Below are positions 1 to 11,182 of a stretch of 30,533 bases of DNA, in pieces. Within the stretch, counting starts at the first letter, position 1, and every line of letters starts with the position of its first letter. The position numbers and the translations under genes are program-made. The stretch lies in IMG/VR virus record IMGVR_UViG_3300021339_000085, positions 1 to 30,533 of that record; one strand, written 5' to 3'. The DNA is from a virus. Under the pieces are notes generated by a model that worked only from the letters and a program-made list of their open reading frames with translations, was not told where the DNA came from and searched no databases.

Positions 1-1344
1 ATGTTACAATTGGTTACAATTCCCGTTACAATTGCCCCCCAAGCCCGCATGAAATCGCAGTTTATACTTATTAAGCAGAGCCAAGCACGCAAGGCGATGC
101 CGGTGATCTACCTCCAGGTATTTGACGCTCGGTTTAAGGATCGGAAATTCTTGTATTCAACGCGGCAAATTATCGATCCGAAGCTGTGGGATGGTGATGC
201 CCAGGCTGTAAAGATCCGGAAGGCAGTAAATCAGGACGACCGGCAGCGCCTCGACGCGTTAGACAAGTTTCTGAAATCAATTCGAAACCGAGTGGAGTTA
301 TACCAGAGCCTGAAGCTGAACAGCAACTATCTCGACAAGGCCGAATTGAAGTCGCATCTCGATGGCATGAAAGACGATGATCGCAAGGACGCCGAAGAGC
401 GGCTAAGGGCCGGGAGCGACTTCTTTAAACTCTGGGAGAAGATAATCGACACCACCCGTGCAAACGGAAAAGCGATATCCGAAGGAACGAAGCGATCAAA
501 AAAACAAACCCTTGTCAAAGTCACCGAGTTCGCCGCTGTCAACAGACTACGGCCAACACTTGACACAATAACCAAAGACTTTTACACCAGCTTCGTGGGA
601 TGGCTGGAAGGTCAAGGACTGAAACCGAACACGTGCGGAAAGCATGTAAAGGAATTGAAAGCAATCCTCCGGGAGGCGGACGATCGGGGATTCAATGTTA
701 ACCCCTCCTACCTAAAGAAATCATTCCGCGTGTTCCGCGAACCTGCAGAGTCTACATACCTGTCAATCGAGGAGCTTAGGAAAATAGCGTCGGTGGCAAT
801 CAAAGGTCAAAAGGCTCAACACAGAGATGTCTTCCTTCAAGCCTGTTTCGTCGGCGCCAGGCATTCGGATTGGCACCAAATACATCCAAACAATGTAGAG
901 GTTCACAATGGCAAAGAACTCCTCCGCATCAAGCAGCAAAAGACAGGGGCAATCATCTATGTCCCAATTCACCCGATGGTAAGGCGAATATGGCAGCGGT
1001 ACAAGGATAGTCCACCGCGGGTGGTGGCTCGTCCAAAGATCGCTGAGGCCATTCGTGAAGTCGCAAAGGTTGCAGAACTTGGGAAAGTTGTGATCAATGG
1101 CCAGCGAGTTGATAAGTACACCACGATATCCACCCACACAGCCCGAAGGTCGTTTGCCACAAACGCCTACCTGAGCGGAGACATGACCGTCCAAGAGATA
1201 ATGAAATGCACGGGGCACCGCACCGAAACCTCATTTCTTAAATACTTAAAACTTGATGGAAGGGACTTCGCATATAAAGCTAGTGACAGCAAATTCTTTT
1301 CAGCAGGTACTTGGGATGAGGGGGTTAAAATGAAAATTGCATGA
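1..1344 (+). CDS. int: Tyrosine recombinase (phage integrase)
   Basis: Site-specific recombinase expected to integrate and, with an excisionase, excise the element. The order is the usual Bacteroidetes one: an Arm DNA-binding beta domain (about residues 17-75, ending near IDPKLWD), a SAM-like core-binding domain (about 140-235) and a catalytic domain (about 255-435). The catalytic set is visible: R287 in GARHSD, K314, H379 and R382 in HTARR, H406 in TGHR and nucleophile Y415 in LKYLK. The frame is open from base 1, but the ATG at 49 (MKSQF) is probably the real start, because family members begin there and the first 16 codons are built from a repeated GTTACAATT. The stop overlaps the next gene as ATGA. 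Its position at the left edge, directed inward, marks this as the integration end. Confidence 0.95.
   Translation: MLQLVTIPVTIAPQARMKSQFILIKQSQARKAMPVIYLQVFDARFKDRKFLYSTRQIIDPKLWDGDAQAVKIRKAVNQDDRQRLDALDKFLKSIRNRVELYQSLKLNSNYLDKAELKSHLDGMKDDDRKDAEERLRAGSDFFKLWEKIIDTTRANGKAISEGTKRSKKQTLVKVTEFAAVNRLRPTLDTITKDFYTSFVGWLEGQGLKPNTCGKHVKELKAILREADDRGFNVNPSYLKKSFRVFREPAESTYLSIEELRKIASVAIKGQKAQHRDVFLQACFVGARHSDWHQIHPNNVEVHNGKELLRIKQQKTGAIIYVPIHPMVRRIWQRYKDSPPRVVARPKIAEAIREVAKVAELGKVVINGQRVDKYTTISTHTARRSFATNAYLSGDMTVQEIMKCTGHRTETSFLKYLKLDGRDFAYKASDSKFFSAGTWDEGVKMKIA
3..33. repeat. Three direct GTTACAATT repeats before the integrase
   Basis: GTTACAATT occurs at 3-11, 13-21 and 25-33, so copy starts are 10 and 12 bases apart, about one helical turn. 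The copies lie just 5' of the likely integrase start at 49. Near-helical spacing beside a recombinase gene suits arm-type integrase sites, binding sites for an accessory or regulatory protein, or part of the attachment region. No copy was seen at the right edge. The function is inference. Confidence 0.45.
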
Positions 1345-2243
1345 AAAGAAAAAAAACAAAGGACCTTCAGTTAGCTAGCCCGGTCGCTGATAACATAATT
1401 ATGGCTGAGGCGCAAGGATACTTTTATAAGTCACAGAAGTATTATTCAAGAGTCTATAAAAAAGGAAAACGTCGTCTGTCGAAAGATGACCTCCAATATT
1501 ACCAAGGGTTTTTACAATCAACCGAATATCAATACTATGAACAGAAACTTGCAGCTGAACATGTCACAGAACTTGGCAGGGTGATCATTCATGAAATGCT
1601 GTATATACTAGGGTACTCAGATCATAGGGCCGTGTCGGAAGAGAGCCCTATCTTTAAGGAGTGCCTACAATTGTTTAATAAAAAGGAGAAAGAAAAGGTG
1701 CCTTTAGAAGACATTCAAAAGCTAACCACCTTATTTGGCTCTCCCTACAATATCGGCAATCGTGACTTTTTATTCTGGTTATTTGCCGACTTTAAGATGT
1801 TTCTGCGTTTATTCTGTGATGGCGCACTATTAACCATTGTAAAACCAAATCACAAAGATGCGTTGGAAGTTACCAAGCTAATCTCATCACTAGACCGCAT
1901 CACTGAAGTAACAATAACTACCAGGCATTCAAGTACGCATCATTTTAAGGGTGCTATTTTTTTGAACTTTATCAAAGAAGCAATTGACTTATACGTTAGT
2001 CGTGGACTTCCTATAAAAAAAATAGACGGTCGTCCGGGATTCAATGAGTGGTTTATCAAATTATACTGCCTTCCGCTTGCTGAGTACCTGCGGTCGCAGG
2101 AAAATTTGAATATGTCGAAGGAGGAGACAAGCGACTTTGTCCATGCTTTTTTCAGTTTGGCAACCCCATTGGGGTTAAGCGAGAAAACCCTTCTTAATAC
2201 TATCTCCCCATTCCTAATCAGAAAACCCAAAACCACCCCCTAA
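1341..2243 (+). CDS. Unknown AT-rich protein coupled to integrase
   Basis: A 300-residue protein that I do not recognise. The N-terminus is basic (MKRKKTK) and Tyr/Lys rich, and the rest looks helical and soluble, with no signal peptide or clear membrane segment. A notable stretch is FLFWLFADFKMFLRLF at about residues 143-158, which is probably a buried amphipathic helix. The start overlaps the integrase stop as ATGA, so the two are probably translated from one message. Sampled 60-base lines inside it (1441, 1681, 1801) are 33-37% G+C, against 53% for a line in the terminase (7801), which suggests later acquisition. Next to an integrase such genes are often lysogeny, defence or exclusion cargo, but no motif proves that here. 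Confidence 0.8.
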   Translation: MKRKKTKDLQLASPVADNIIMAEAQGYFYKSQKYYSRVYKKGKRRLSKDDLQYYQGFLQSTEYQYYEQKLAAEHVTELGRVIIHEMLYILGYSDHRAVSEESPIFKECLQLFNKKEKEKVPLEDIQKLTTLFGSPYNIGNRDFLFWLFADFKMFLRLFCDGALLTIVKPNHKDALEVTKLISSLDRITEVTITTRHSSTHHFKGAIFLNFIKEAIDLYVSRGLPIKKIDGRPGFNEWFIKLYCLPLAEYLRSQENLNMSKEETSDFVHAFFSLATPLGLSEKTLLNTISPFLIRKPKTTP

Positions 2244-2248
2244 TTTTG
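2241..2248 (+). promoter_or_regulatory. Candidate -7 promoter box TAATTTTG
   Basis: This is an exact match to the Bacteroidetes -7 consensus TAnnTTTG, overlapping the stop codon of the preceding gene and about 50 bases before the first helix-turn-helix gene. No TTG is present at the matching -33 distance, so it could be chance. Confidence 0.27.
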
Positions 2249-2299
2249 TAGGGCCTTTAGGTTTTAATACGCATCGTATCTGTTCATCATTGCGTCGTA

Positions 2300-2509
2300 A
2301 TGCCCATAAAGGAGCATTATCAACCAATAATGATGTGCCAAAGCCCTATTACCCTAACCGACGCGATCAAAAAGTACAAACTTTCAAGAACGACTATCGG
2401 TCGAAAGGCGAAACAGGGTGTCATCACGAAATTTACCTTCAAAAGTTCGAGGCGCGTATACCTCGATGAAACTCAAATTCTTGAAGCTTTAAAACCAAAA
2501 GCATCATGA
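2300..2509 (+). CDS. Small helix-turn-helix protein, excisionase-like
   Basis: A 69-residue protein with a MerR/HTH_17-type reading: TLTDAIKKYKLSRTTIGRKAKQG (about residues 18-40) forms the helix-turn-helix, followed by a wing ending in RRVYLDETQILEAL. Such proteins in Bacteroidetes mobile elements act as excisionases or small DNA-binding regulators. The first ATG is at 2300. Internal ATGs at 2330 and 2333 give a product closer to the domain edge and may be the real start. It overlaps the next HTH gene as ATGA, so the pair is probably co-translated and could act jointly in excision or early control. Which role it has cannot be told from sequence. Confidence 0.8.
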   Translation: MPIKEHYQPIMMCQSPITLTDAIKKYKLSRTTIGRKAKQGVITKFTFKSSRRVYLDETQILEALKPKAS

Positions 2510-2790
2510 GTTCGCAAAAAATCCTACTCGAACTCCCAGAGGAAACGTTCACCAGGCTCGAAGCTACAATTCAACGGTGTGTCGAGGAGTCTTTAATGCG
2601 GAACGTCGACAAGCTACGAGTTGAGCCAGAGCTGTTGAGCCGAGACCAGGTCGCAAAACGCCTTCGTATAACCGCACCGACCCTTAGACGACTTGAGGTC
2701 GAAGGCAAGCTGGTACCGCAACGCGCCGGCCGGCGAGTGCTTTACAATGCAAGGACTGTTGAAAATTTCTTAAATGCAGGGACTGGCTGA
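2506..2790 (+). CDS. HTH_17-type DNA-binding protein, excisionase-like
   Basis: A 94-residue protein. Residues about 1-40 form a helical leader, and the C-terminal half is a clear HTH_17/excisionase domain: LLSRDQVAKRLRITAPTLRR (about 44-63), then VEGKLVPQRAGRRVLYNARTVENFL. This is the form found in Bacteroidetes conjugative elements and prophages, where it binds near the attachment site and assists Int, or acts as a regulator. It follows the other HTH gene with an ATGA overlap. A 104-base gap separates it from the replication gene. No separate CI-like repressor is seen, so one of these two may also carry out transcriptional control. Confidence 0.82.
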   Translation: MSSQKILLELPEETFTRLEATIQRCVEESLMRNVDKLRVEPELLSRDQVAKRLRITAPTLRRLEVEGKLVPQRAGRRVLYNARTVENFLNAGTG

Positions 2791-2894: not shown

Positions 2895-3665
2895 ATGCCT
2901 AACAGAGTCCTCCGCGACTGGACCGCCTCCGAAACAATTGACCTTCTGCCCCCTAGTGCCGAGGTTTTCTTTACCCGCCTTATTATGAAGGCTGACGATC
3001 ATGGTTGCTTCCACGGTAATCCAAAGCTGCTACGAGCCGCTTTATTTCCCCTGAAGGAATACAAAGACAAGGATATCCTCACATGGCGCGATGAATGCCG
3101 GAAAGCCGGTCTGGTTCAGATGTATTTGGTCGATGGTCGGGAGTACATCAAGATTTTGAACTTCGGACAGAGGTTGCGGCGGATGGTGAGCCGGTTTCCG
3201 CAACCCAACAGCGACACGCATGTGCACGACAGCGCCTCGCCGTCAATTGTCCGCACTCTGCCGCCTGAAACAGAAACAGAAACAGAAACAGAAACAGAAA
3301 CAGAAGTAGAAACAGAAACGAAACTGAATCCGAAGACAGTCGCGGTCGAACCGCTTGTATTTGTCTGGCCTTCTTTCGATGACTTCTGGGAAGCATACGG
3401 CAAAAAGGTTGACCGGCCCAAGTGTGAAAAAAAATGGAAAAAGATTTCACAGGAGGCGCGCGAAAAATTGATGGATCACGTCCCGCGATACGTGGCGTCC
3501 AGCCCGGAGATTCAATACCGGAAGAATCCTTTGACCTACCTGAACGGCGAATGTTGGAATGATGAAATAATTACAAATGGAAAACGAAATCCAAAAGAAG
3601 ACAATCTCCGAAGCATTGCAGACGGTATCGCAAGACGCTTCAACGAGGCTAATGGCACAAGGTAA
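2895..3665 (+). CDS. Phage replication protein (initiator / helicase-loader type)
   Basis: A 256-residue protein with two domains. The N-terminal part (about 1-105: RVLRDWTASETIDLLPPSAEVFFTRL...ADDHGCF) is the winged-helix-like domain seen in phage replisome-organiser proteins. A linker of alternating Glu-Thr follows (about 125-142), encoded by hexamer repeats. The C-terminal part (about 152-220) has the pattern WPSFDDFWEAYGKKVDRPKCEKKW and later NPLTYLNGECWNDE, typical of DnaT/DnaD-like C-termini in phage initiators. It probably opens the origin and recruits the host helicase. No phage helicase, primase or polymerase was found, so the element depends on the host replisome. It overlaps the next gene by up to 89 bases if that gene starts at 3577. 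Confidence 0.82.
   Translation: MPNRVLRDWTASETIDLLPPSAEVFFTRLIMKADDHGCFHGNPKLLRAALFPLKEYKDKDILTWRDECRKAGLVQMYLVDGREYIKILNFGQRLRRMVSRFPQPNSDTHVHDSASPSIVRTLPPETETETETETETEVETETKLNPKTVAVEPLVFVWPSFDDFWEAYGKKVDRPKCEKKWKKISQEAREKLMDHVPRYVASSPEIQYRKNPLTYLNGECWNDEIITNGKRNPKEDNLRSIADGIARRFNEANGTR
3267..3320 (+). repeat. GAAACA hexamer tandem repeat inside replication gene
   Basis: Nine hexamer units, seven of them exactly GAAACA (six consecutive), one GAAGTA and one GAAACG. They are in frame and encode the (Glu-Thr)n linker between the two domains of the replication protein. The tract is prone to slippage in steps that keep the frame. In several phages the origin lies inside the initiator gene, so an origin role is possible but unproven. 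Confidence 0.9.
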
Positions 3666-8927: not shown

Positions 8928-9620
8928 ATGAACCCCGTCGTAGTCATCGCCTCTCATCTTCGCTCCTCGATCACCCGGCAGAACATTCAAAGCCTGCTCC
9001 GTCAGTCGGTCGTTCCTGAGATCGTTCTCGTTGTCTCCGTCCCAGATGAGTACGAGCGGTGGAAAAAGGAATTTCCAATCATCCATGTTTTGAAGGAACG
9101 TAATTGGCCGCTGGGTAAGAAATGGCAGGCTGGCGTCGATCATGCCCGAAAGCTGAACGCGGACCCCATGATTATCACCGGCTCGGACGATATCCTTGGA
9201 GTTGACTTCGTAAAAAACGCCTGCAGTCTTTCCCGGCAACATGATTTCATTGGCTTGCAGGATTGGAGCGTGCTACACGAGAGTTTCCTGTACTCGATCA
9301 CCTACAACGCGAAGATACCGCTCGGCGCCGGAAGGGTTTACTCCAACGGCCTTTTAGAGGCAATGAATTGGATCGTGTTCAACACCCGCATAAACCGGCA
9401 TCTGGACGACCAAGGCTATCACAACACAAGGAGATTATGCAGGCCCATGCTGATTGTCCGCGATGCAGCAGCGCAAGGATTACACGTTGTATCCGTAAAG
9501 GGACCGTGGGTGATGATGAACAGATTCGTGTCGATGCTCCAGCATCCCAACTGTACAGTGAGGTCGAAAGTGGAGGCAATAGAAGTTCAAAACCTGATAG
9601 GATTTAAACCCATCGTCTGA
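8928..9620 (+). CDS. GT-A glycosyltransferase-like protein (first copy)
   Basis: A 230-residue protein with a GT-A/family-2-like fold: a Rossmann-type start (VVVIASHLRS), NWPLGKK at 59-65, and G85-S86-D87-D88 as the DxD-type nucleotide-sugar/metal motif at the end of a hydrophobic strand (MIITGSDD). Further on are GAGR at 133-136, LEAMNW at 143-148 and NRHLDD at 156-161. The last four motifs recur in order in the gene at 15859, so the two are paralogues. The sugar and acceptor are unknown. It lies within the late operon between terminase and portal, and its stop overlaps the next start as TGATG. This placement suggests modification of virion proteins. Host surface-glycan modification is an alternative. 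Confidence 0.8.
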   Translation: MNPVVVIASHLRSSITRQNIQSLLRQSVVPEIVLVVSVPDEYERWKKEFPIIHVLKERNWPLGKKWQAGVDHARKLNADPMIITGSDDILGVDFVKNACSLSRQHDFIGLQDWSVLHESFLYSITYNAKIPLGAGRVYSNGLLEAMNWIVFNTRINRHLDDQGYHNTRRLCRPMLIVRDAAAQGLHVVSVKGPWVMMNRFVSMLQHPNCTVRSKVEAIEVQNLIGFKPIV

Positions 9621-11182
9621 TGTGCAGAATAGCTGGCATTCTTCACAAGCATAACAATTCAGATTGGTCCCAACTGGCCGCAATGCGCGACCATCAAAGA
9701 CCCGGAGGACCGGACGCGTCCGGGACATGGACCGATGATCACTGCGGCCTTGCCCACAACCGCCTTTCAATTCTTGACCTATCGGAAAACGGAAGCCAAC
9801 CGATGGAGTCCGAGAACTGGGTACTGTGCTACAACGGAGAGATTTACAACCATCTCCAGCTCAGAAAACAGATCAACCGTCAGTGGAAGGGACATTCCGA
9901 TACCGAAACTTTACTTTACCTGATAGAAACCTATGGACTGGAATCTGCACTTGATAAAATCGAGGGCATGTACGCCTTTGGTGCGTATAACAAAGGAAGC
10001 AAAGACCTTTACCTCGTCACCGATCAGCTATCTATCAAGCCGCTTTATTACGCTCTTTCAAACGGGCGTCTCCTTTTTGCGAGTTCTATTGCTGCCATAG
10101 CGCTACAGCTTTCGAAACTTCAACTGAACAAACAGGCGCTGACGGATTACCTGGCCCTCGGTTCAACTTATGAACCGTTGTTCCAGGACATCAACAAGGT
10201 CCACCCACGCACGATTGTGAGGGTCACAAAGGACTTGTTTGTCACGGAGTCGAAGTATCACCCTTTCGATCATTACAGGGCTTACACCGAACAGGATTGC
10301 ATCGAAGCCGTGGTAAACTCCATCGAGTCGGTGAGGCTTTCGGATGTGCCGTTGTTCATATTTTTATCCGGGGGTATTGATAGCAGCGTAGTGGCCGGCT
10401 GTCTTCCTGGTGTGAACGCGGTGCATCTTAACTCCCCGGAAGAAAGGTACGCCCAACAGGCCGCGGACAAATTCAACACGCAATTATCCTTTATCGACCC
10501 AGCAGAAGAAAATGCGGAGGATTGCTTAAAGGACTACGCTTTCCAGTCCGGGGACTGCTCGATGGCAGCCTTGATCCCTTACATCACATCAAAGAAAGCA
10601 AGCCGGTTCGGCAAGGTGGCCATTTCGGCGAACGGAGCGGATGAGATCTTTGTAGGCTATGACCGGATAAAAGCAAGCACAACAGATGCGCAGATAAACC
10701 ACATCTTCCGCCGGCAATTCTACGACGAAAGCTCATGGAGAGAGATCGTTGCAAGCCACAGCCGCATGACGGAGTTGGATACTTACCTCTCCTACGACCT
10801 GAACAAAACACTGGACTATGCCTCGATGTGCTTCGGGCTTGAGGTCCGGGTACCGTTCCTGAACCGTGAAGTGATCCGGGCGGCAATGTGGCTCCCGCGC
10901 GAAAGCCATGTAAACGGCCTGGGAAATAAGTCCATCCTCAAGAAATGGCTGTTGTCGAAAGGATTCAGTGAGCATTTTGTAAACAGGCAGAAACTCGGAT
11001 TTTCGCTACATACCGAACCATTAGGATACACGAAACTGCAAGCTGATGGAGTTAAGTTGCTCTCTGACAATTTTGGTATCAGTCCGAAGTTTCAGCGAAA
11101 CTCTCGCGACGATCGATACTTTCGCATGAGCGCGGCTGCATTCTATTGCTGGCACCAGGTGTGGGGTACGCGACTCAGCTAA
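9620..11182 (+). CDS. Asparagine-synthetase-like glutamine amidotransferase
   Basis: A 520-residue AsnB-family enzyme. The class II glutaminase domain (about 1-185) starts MCRIAG with nucleophile C2 and keeps R48, N72-G73-E74 (YNGEIYN) and D94 (SDTET). The synthetase domain has the PP-loop S240-GGIDSS246 for ATP, the motif SANGADEIF at 316-324, DYASMCFGLEVRVPFL at about 389-404 and a KLGFS near 468. Family members transfer ammonia to an adenylated carboxylate. In E. coli AsnB the equivalent of N318 is a Glu important for catalysis, so a substrate other than aspartate, for instance a uronic acid, is possible. It is coupled by TGATG to the glycosyltransferase. It is slightly shorter than E. coli AsnB and looks intact. 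A plain asparagine supply role is the alternative. Confidence 0.9.
   Translation: MCRIAGILHKHNNSDWSQLAAMRDHQRPGGPDASGTWTDDHCGLAHNRLSILDLSENGSQPMESENWVLCYNGEIYNHLQLRKQINRQWKGHSDTETLLYLIETYGLESALDKIEGMYAFGAYNKGSKDLYLVTDQLSIKPLYYALSNGRLLFASSIAAIALQLSKLQLNKQALTDYLALGSTYEPLFQDINKVHPRTIVRVTKDLFVTESKYHPFDHYRAYTEQDCIEAVVNSIESVRLSDVPLFIFLSGGIDSSVVAGCLPGVNAVHLNSPEERYAQQAADKFNTQLSFIDPAEENAEDCLKDYAFQSGDCSMAALIPYITSKKASRFGKVAISANGADEIFVGYDRIKASTTDAQINHIFRRQFYDESSWREIVASHSRMTELDTYLSYDLNKTLDYASMCFGLEVRVPFLNREVIRAAMWLPRESHVNGLGNKSILKKWLLSKGFSEHFVNRQKLGFSLHTEPLGYTKLQADGVKLLSDNFGISPKFQRNSRDDRYFRMSAAAFYCWHQVWGTRLS

What the first reader, a model, noticed from the sequence alone, without database searches (positions are those of the whole stretch)
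1341..2243. AT-rich unknown gene coupled to the integrase
Sampled lines are 33-37% G+C and the 300-residue product matches nothing I know. Coupling to int by ATGA means it is made whenever the integrase is. Candidates are excision control, lysogeny decision or anti-phage defence.
Basis: partly seen in the sequence, partly recalled or inferred. Interest (0 to 1): 0.5.

Follow-up and report, generated by a model that had tools for sequence, protein, structure and literature searches.

The report
Swappable cargo gene beside phage integrase
The gene makes a protein with no known relatives and sits in a spot just behind the integrase where related bacterial viruses carry different, swapped-in genes or none, so it is most likely an optional helper gene, perhaps against rival phages, whose function is still unproven.

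Summary
The ORF is real and exactly placed (1341-2243, 300 aa, ATGA overlap with the integrase stop). It has the lowest G+C of 37 gene models (39.7%; window 49.4%), although the quoted 33-37% fits only some lines. I found no relative in Pfam, PHROGs, NCBIfam, PADLOC, PDB, phages, plasmids, viral contigs or bacterial genomes, and the fold could not be predicted (pLDDT 44).

The surroundings explain more than the sequence. The order integrase / this gene / excisionase-type HTH recurs in Bacteroidota-type mobile elements. In 23 loci with that HTH gene behind the integrase, the gap ranges from 5 to 2470 nt; 14 of 23 hold a gene of at least 100 aa, and the gap is more AT-rich than the integrase in 23 of 23. 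Sister integrases (65-92% identical) carry unrelated genes, or none, between shared flanks, with homology breaking at or near the integrase stop. So this is a hypervariable accessory-gene slot of a known kind (prophage hotspots), and the gene is its occupant here.

A lysogen-stage accessory role, possibly superinfection exclusion, is the best guess. An obligatory integrase partner is disfavoured because the slot is often empty. No function was tested.

The parts
1..1344 (+). Tyrosine integrase (Phage_int_SAM_5 + Phage_integrase); the true start is probably codon 17 (nt 49)
   Evidence: PF13102 5.6e-11, PF00589 3e-5; phrog_1 1.1e-23; R..K..HxxR..H..Y residues conserved in the alignment; five relatives lack the first 16 residues. 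The start at 49 is inference.
3..33 (+). Three GTTACAATT direct repeats, possibly integrase arm sites or an operator (inference)
   Evidence: 3 exact copies in the window, 0 of 100 shuffles reach 3
1341..2243 (+). The finding: 300-aa orphan protein, basic (pI 9.2), no clear membrane helix, mostly helical in a poor model; occupant of the int-HTH slot
1341..1344 (+). ATGA overlap of the integrase stop and the start of the 300-aa ORF
2238..2253 (+). Weak hairpin (5 pairs) over the stop codon; probably not significant
   Evidence: 6 terminator-like sites found against a mean of 4.0 in shuffles
2300..2509 (+). Small HTH protein (69 aa), right flank of the slot
   Evidence: HTH_17 E 0.0079, below the cut-off; phrog_66 0.0052; match to the HTH of L196, 5e-4
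2506..2790 (+). Excisionase-type HTH protein (94 aa), the conserved right-hand marker of the slot
   Evidence: HTH_17 2.5e-6, phrog_66 excisionase 1.3e-7, TIGR01764 8.5e-5, below the cut-off; homologues behind related integrases
2895..3665 (+). Replication initiation protein
   Evidence: phrog_270 3.3e-17; matches in the same module of L209 (1e-26), L195 (1e-20) and L211 (3e-12)

Best explanation
The gene is the current occupant of a hypervariable accessory-gene (cargo) slot between the integrase and the excisionase-type HTH/replication genes of a Bacteroidota-type temperate phage. Shown by comparison: the slot exists, is AT-rich, changes content between closely related integrases, and can be empty. 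Inferred: genes enter by recombination ending at the integrase stop, often leaving the new ORF within a few tens of bases of int so that it is translated with it. Inferred, and less sure (about 0.4): its product acts in the lysogen or early infection for the prophage's or host's benefit, most plausibly against competing phages, as in other prophage hotspots.
For: Of 23 loci with a homologue of the window's HTH94 within 3.5 kb behind the integrase, the int-to-HTH gap is 5 to 2470 nt, 14 of 23 hold an ORF of at least 100 aa, and the gap is below the integrase in G+C in 23 of 23. Pairs with integrases at least 50% identical and both slots filled: occupants similar in 1 of 6, another downstream gene shared in 6 of 6; one slot filled and one empty: another downstream gene shared in 6 of 11 (pairs are not independent). 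Breakpoints: L100/L102 (int 92%), L173/L166 (78%), L031/L032 (73%), L225/L226 (74%) lose similarity at or within about 15 nt of the integrase stop and regain it at the next gene. Start-adjacent occupants have lower G+C than their integrase in 19 of 23. Hotspots next to int with antiviral genes are published for P4-like satellites and a Vibrionaceae P2-related phage (PMC9122126, passages).
Against: No relative of this very protein was found, so its own swap history is not seen; the window's integrase is itself distant (no starred branch groups it; at most 37% identity). Most occupants match no defence family: of 20 scanned against PADLOC, 2 hit strongly (SoFic in L028, PDC-S05/ORF6N in L185) and 2 weakly. 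Tight gene packing alone gives some adjacent ORFs: 23 of 125 same strand against 9 of 125 tail-to-tail on the other strand. In the lactococcal phage Dub35A, genes between int and repressor had no effect on the phages tested (PMC7693887, passages).
Confidence: 0.62

Rival explanations
1. A fast-evolving partner or regulator of the integrase (excision or directionality factor), coupled so that the two are made together; occupants look unrelated because they evolve too fast.
For: ATGA coupling and a start within -41 to +52 nt of the int stop in all 23 occupants counted (the window I allowed was -60 to +60); coupled genes cluster on the integrase tree, 15 changes against a shuffled mean of 21.6, 0 of 500 as low; a basic protein, pI 9.2.
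Against: Sister integrases with an empty slot: L032, L102, L225; in L186 and L187 the HTH follows int after 5 and 8 nt. No shared domain: C-terminal pairs mean z 0.05 over 153 pairs. A separate excisionase-type HTH gene is present.
Confidence: 0.18
2. A DNA-binding regulator (lysogeny decision) acquired next to int.
For: Basic, probably helical protein beside two HTH genes.
Against: No HTH or other DNA-binding model matched it with confidence; the neighbouring HTH genes already fill that place.
Confidence: 0.1
3. Selfish or neutral passenger DNA with no selected function in the phage.
For: Atypical G+C and codon use; no relatives found.
Against: An intact 300-codon frame, longer than any of 300 random trials, kept tightly coupled.
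Confidence: 0.1

Closest known systems
Prophage and satellite hotspots of antiviral systems (P4-like psu-int; P2-like gpA-gpQ; Vibrionaceae cI-int), PMC9122126 (passages read)
   Same: A small locus between conserved genes, next to int in two of the cases, with high turnover of unrelated accessory genes
   Different: Here the right flank is an excisionase-type HTH gene of Bacteroidota-type elements; the commonest content is a single orphan gene; no defence activity tested
Superinfection-exclusion genes between integrase and repressor in Gram-positive temperate phages, PMC7693887 (passages read)
   Same: Optional extra genes in the lysogeny module beside int
   Different: Those proteins are commonly membrane-associated; this one has no clear membrane helix, no repressor was recognised beside it, and no homology was seen
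RteC (PF09357) of Bacteroides conjugative transposons, my first guess from memory
   Same: An int-linked Bacteroidota mobile-element protein of similar size (recalled)
   Different: No match in the window at E up to 10

Membership tests
[quoted passage not shown]
   int on the left and a homologous HTH gene on the right in 23 loci, window included
Prophage accessory-gene hotspot (type of PMC9122126) | High turnover: different content in close relatives, or none | tested here: met
   not shown for the window's own integrase, whose nearest match is 37% identical
Prophage accessory-gene hotspot (type of PMC9122126) | Known defence systems among the occupants | tested here: inconclusive
   2 of 20 scanned occupants hit PADLOC strongly (SoFic, PDC-S05), 2 weakly
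Prophage accessory-gene hotspot (type of PMC9122126) | Occupants reduce infection by other phages | not testable with these tools
   needs plaque assays
RteC family (PF09357) | Matches the curated profile | tested here: not met
   0 of 1, E up to 10; the control rang in 4 of 14 genomes and over the cut-off in none, so the control is weak
Known anti-phage families (PADLOC-DB 2.0.0) | Profile match | tested here: not met
   no family at E up to 10
Excisionase / recombination directionality factor | HTH or excisionase profile match | tested here: not met
   none for the 300-aa protein; the 94-aa neighbour matches instead
Superinfection-exclusion membrane protein | Membrane helix or lipoprotein signal | tested here: inconclusive
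   highest 19-residue Kyte-Doolittle mean 1.25 at residue 149, soluble by that measure; no dedicated predictor available

The most novel reading that the evidence does not exclude
The space behind this class of Bacteroidota integrase is a general landing site that has collected many unrelated, undescribed antiviral proteins, of which this 300-aa protein is one of a new family, made together with the integrase.
Probability: 0.3. Interest if true: 0.65.

Novelty: new member of a known kind. Interest (0 to 1): 0.42.

Why it matters
If the slot is an antiviral hotspot, its address (integrase stop to excisionase-type HTH gene) is a simple rule for collecting untested defence genes from Bacteroidota mobile elements, where hotspots seem less charted: my searches turned up no description of this one in the held papers. 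It also warns that overlap with an integrase does not imply a role in integration.

Tried and rejected
Direct profile and sequence searches of the protein gave nothing: Pfam, PHROGs, NCBIfam, PADLOC (best Pfam DUF627 E 0.18 and YbeY 0.23), PDB sequences (best 0.15), tblastn in phages (Dulem virus 41 at E 2) and plasmids (E 0.3, on the strand opposite to the annotated gene), pattern scans of viral contigs with the whole protein and a middle fragment, genome contigs, and 15 portal-related records plus 4 plasmid records. A motif scan for GFNEWF-x found 37 contigs, none related.

RteC membership, recalled from memory, was tested and not met. A shared C-terminal motif seen by eye among slot proteins was tested by shuffles, single-sequence hhalign and small profiles and was not supported for this protein. 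The fold is unusable: mean pLDDT 43.6, and Foldseek against PDB gave no match at E <= 0.001. Portal-related records did not help with the integrase module: 0 of 15 matched the integrase and 0 of 11 matched PF00589. The portal scan of genome contigs found no relative.

The division at the 47 nearest integrases (16 of 47 against 6 of 77, Fisher 4e-4) was made after I had seen the bins and is descriptive only.

Full report
What is there. The window is a whole IMG/VR record of 30,533 bases with terminase, portal, capsid and tail genes. At its left end lie the integrase ORF (1-1344), the 300-aa ORF (1341-2243), two small HTH genes (2300-2509, 2506-2790) and a replication initiation gene (2895-3665). 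The 300-aa ORF starts inside the integrase stop, ATGA at 1341-1344. It is far longer than chance: the longest stop-free run in 300 random 3-kb sequences was 186 codons. Its G+C is 39.7% against 49.4% for the window, the lowest of 37 gene models that I picked from the ORF list; its codon fit is also the worst, by a hair. The quoted 33-37% holds for some lines only; 60-base lines run from 28 to 48%.

The protein itself. Nothing related was found: Pfam, PHROGs, NCBIfam and PADLOC, PDB sequences, phages and plasmids by tblastn, viral contigs and one genome per species of bacteria and archaea. The contig scans need exact 8-residue stretches, so they see close relatives only. Without relatives the fold could not be predicted (mean pLDDT 43.6, mostly helices) and the fold search is empty. 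It is basic (pI 9.2), with no clear membrane helix.

The integrase. It carries the SAM-like and catalytic domains, and the catalytic R, K, HxxR, H and Y (roles recalled) stand in columns invariant among six integrases. Five relatives start about 16 residues later, so the true start is probably nt 49 (inference). Three GTTACAATT repeats then lie just upstream, at 3-33 (0 of 100 shuffles reach three copies).

The survey. Two scans of viral contigs with integrase alignments gave 98 and 185 confirmed places, of which the best 80 each were kept. With phage and plasmid records and removal of near-copies (last 150 residues identical) this gave 132 integrases, 125 of them with at least 700 nt downstream (the other seven were dropped). 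In 23 of 125 an ORF of at least 140 aa on the same strand begins within 60 nt of the integrase stop; an ORF of that size ending tail-to-tail on the other strand occurs in 9 of 125. Among integrases nearer to the window's this is commoner (16 of 47 against 6 of 77, window left out; the cut was chosen after seeing the bins). On the tree the label needs 15 changes against a shuffled mean of 21.6, 0 of 500 as low, so it is clustered but has come or gone many times. The window's integrase has no starred sister; its highest identity is 37%.

A slot with changing content. The 94-aa HTH gene of the window has homologues behind many of these integrases. In 23 loci, window included, the distance from the integrase stop to that HTH gene runs from 5 to 2470 nt. 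Fourteen of the 23 hold at least one ORF of 100 aa or more in between; nine do not. In all 23 the interval is lower in G+C than the integrase, so part of the AT-richness belongs to the place, not to the gene; short empty intervals are non-coding and AT-rich in any case. Among start-adjacent occupants alone, 19 of 23 are below their integrase (18 of 22 without the window).

Swaps. Of pairs with integrases at least 50% identical over 280 aa, six have both slots filled: the occupants are similar in one, and another downstream gene is shared in six. Eleven have one slot filled: another downstream gene is shared in six of eleven. The six pairs come from two clusters of integrases, so they are not six events. 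In single pairs the edges are sharp. L100 and L102 (integrases 92% identical) match to 3 nt past the integrase stop, then one has 526 nt with a low-G+C ORF (35% in a 51% locus) and the other 107 nt, and similarity resumes at the stop codon of that ORF. L173 and L166 (78%) match to within 7 nt of the integrase stop, then carry unrelated proteins of 287 and 321 aa, and match again in the next gene. L031 (289-aa gene) and L032 (none), both Bacteroidales plasmid records, and L226 and L225 behave alike.

What the occupants are. Of 20 slot proteins scanned against PADLOC besides the window's, a Fic protein (L028, SoFic 6.5e-120) and an ORF6N protein (L185, PDC-S05 4.2e-55) hit strongly and two hit weakly (ZorA 0.0019 in L173, ThsB 0.0075 in L166). 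A NotI-type endonuclease lies 110 nt behind another integrase (L054, 3.1e-54), outside the 60-nt limit. Most of the others match no Pfam model above its cut-off. I looked for a common domain among them and did not find one for this protein.

How it probably works. Shown: a slot, its changing content, its AT-richness, and the coupling. Inferred: genes are gained by recombination ending at the integrase stop, and those landing in place are translated behind int. Because the slot is empty in sisters of filled integrases, the occupant is unlikely to be needed for integration or excision. By analogy with published hotspots next to integrases that hold antiviral systems (PMC9122126, passages), a role against competing phages is the best single guess, about 0.4. 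A published counter-example stands: genes between int and repressor of phage Dub35A did not protect against the tested phages (PMC7693887, passages).

Verdict. An ordinary-looking but real orphan gene in a swappable slot. The slot is a new instance of a known kind; the protein is a new sequence of unknown function. Weak points: no homologue of the protein, a distant integrase, metagenomic contigs of unstated host, and thresholds chosen by me.

Noticed in passing
window 9620-11182: Asparagine-synthetase-like protein (PF13522 4.3e-36, PF00733 1.6e-33; phrog_16728 of unknown function 1.2e-74) between the terminase and portal genes.
   Followed up: no
window 3-33: Three GTTACAATT direct repeats just before the likely integrase start, possible arm-type sites.
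   Followed up: partly
window 3267-3321: GAAACA repeats inside the replication gene, giving a run of Glu-Thr (read).
   Followed up: no
L004-L027, L034-L037: Phages with related portals (57-67% identical in the closest records) show no match to this integrase (0 of 15 records; 0 of 11 for PF00589), suggesting that the integration module is exchanged as a unit, or that the records are fragments.
   Followed up: partly
L172:2045-3694, L184:4284-6156, L185:1294-3290: Slots with more than one gene; the 549-aa protein of L172 has a weak match to the nuclease family PBECR3 (PF18812, 1.5e-4, below the cut-off).
   Followed up: no
L054:3733-4620: NotI-type restriction endonuclease (PF12183 3.1e-54) 110 nt behind a related integrase.
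   Followed up: no
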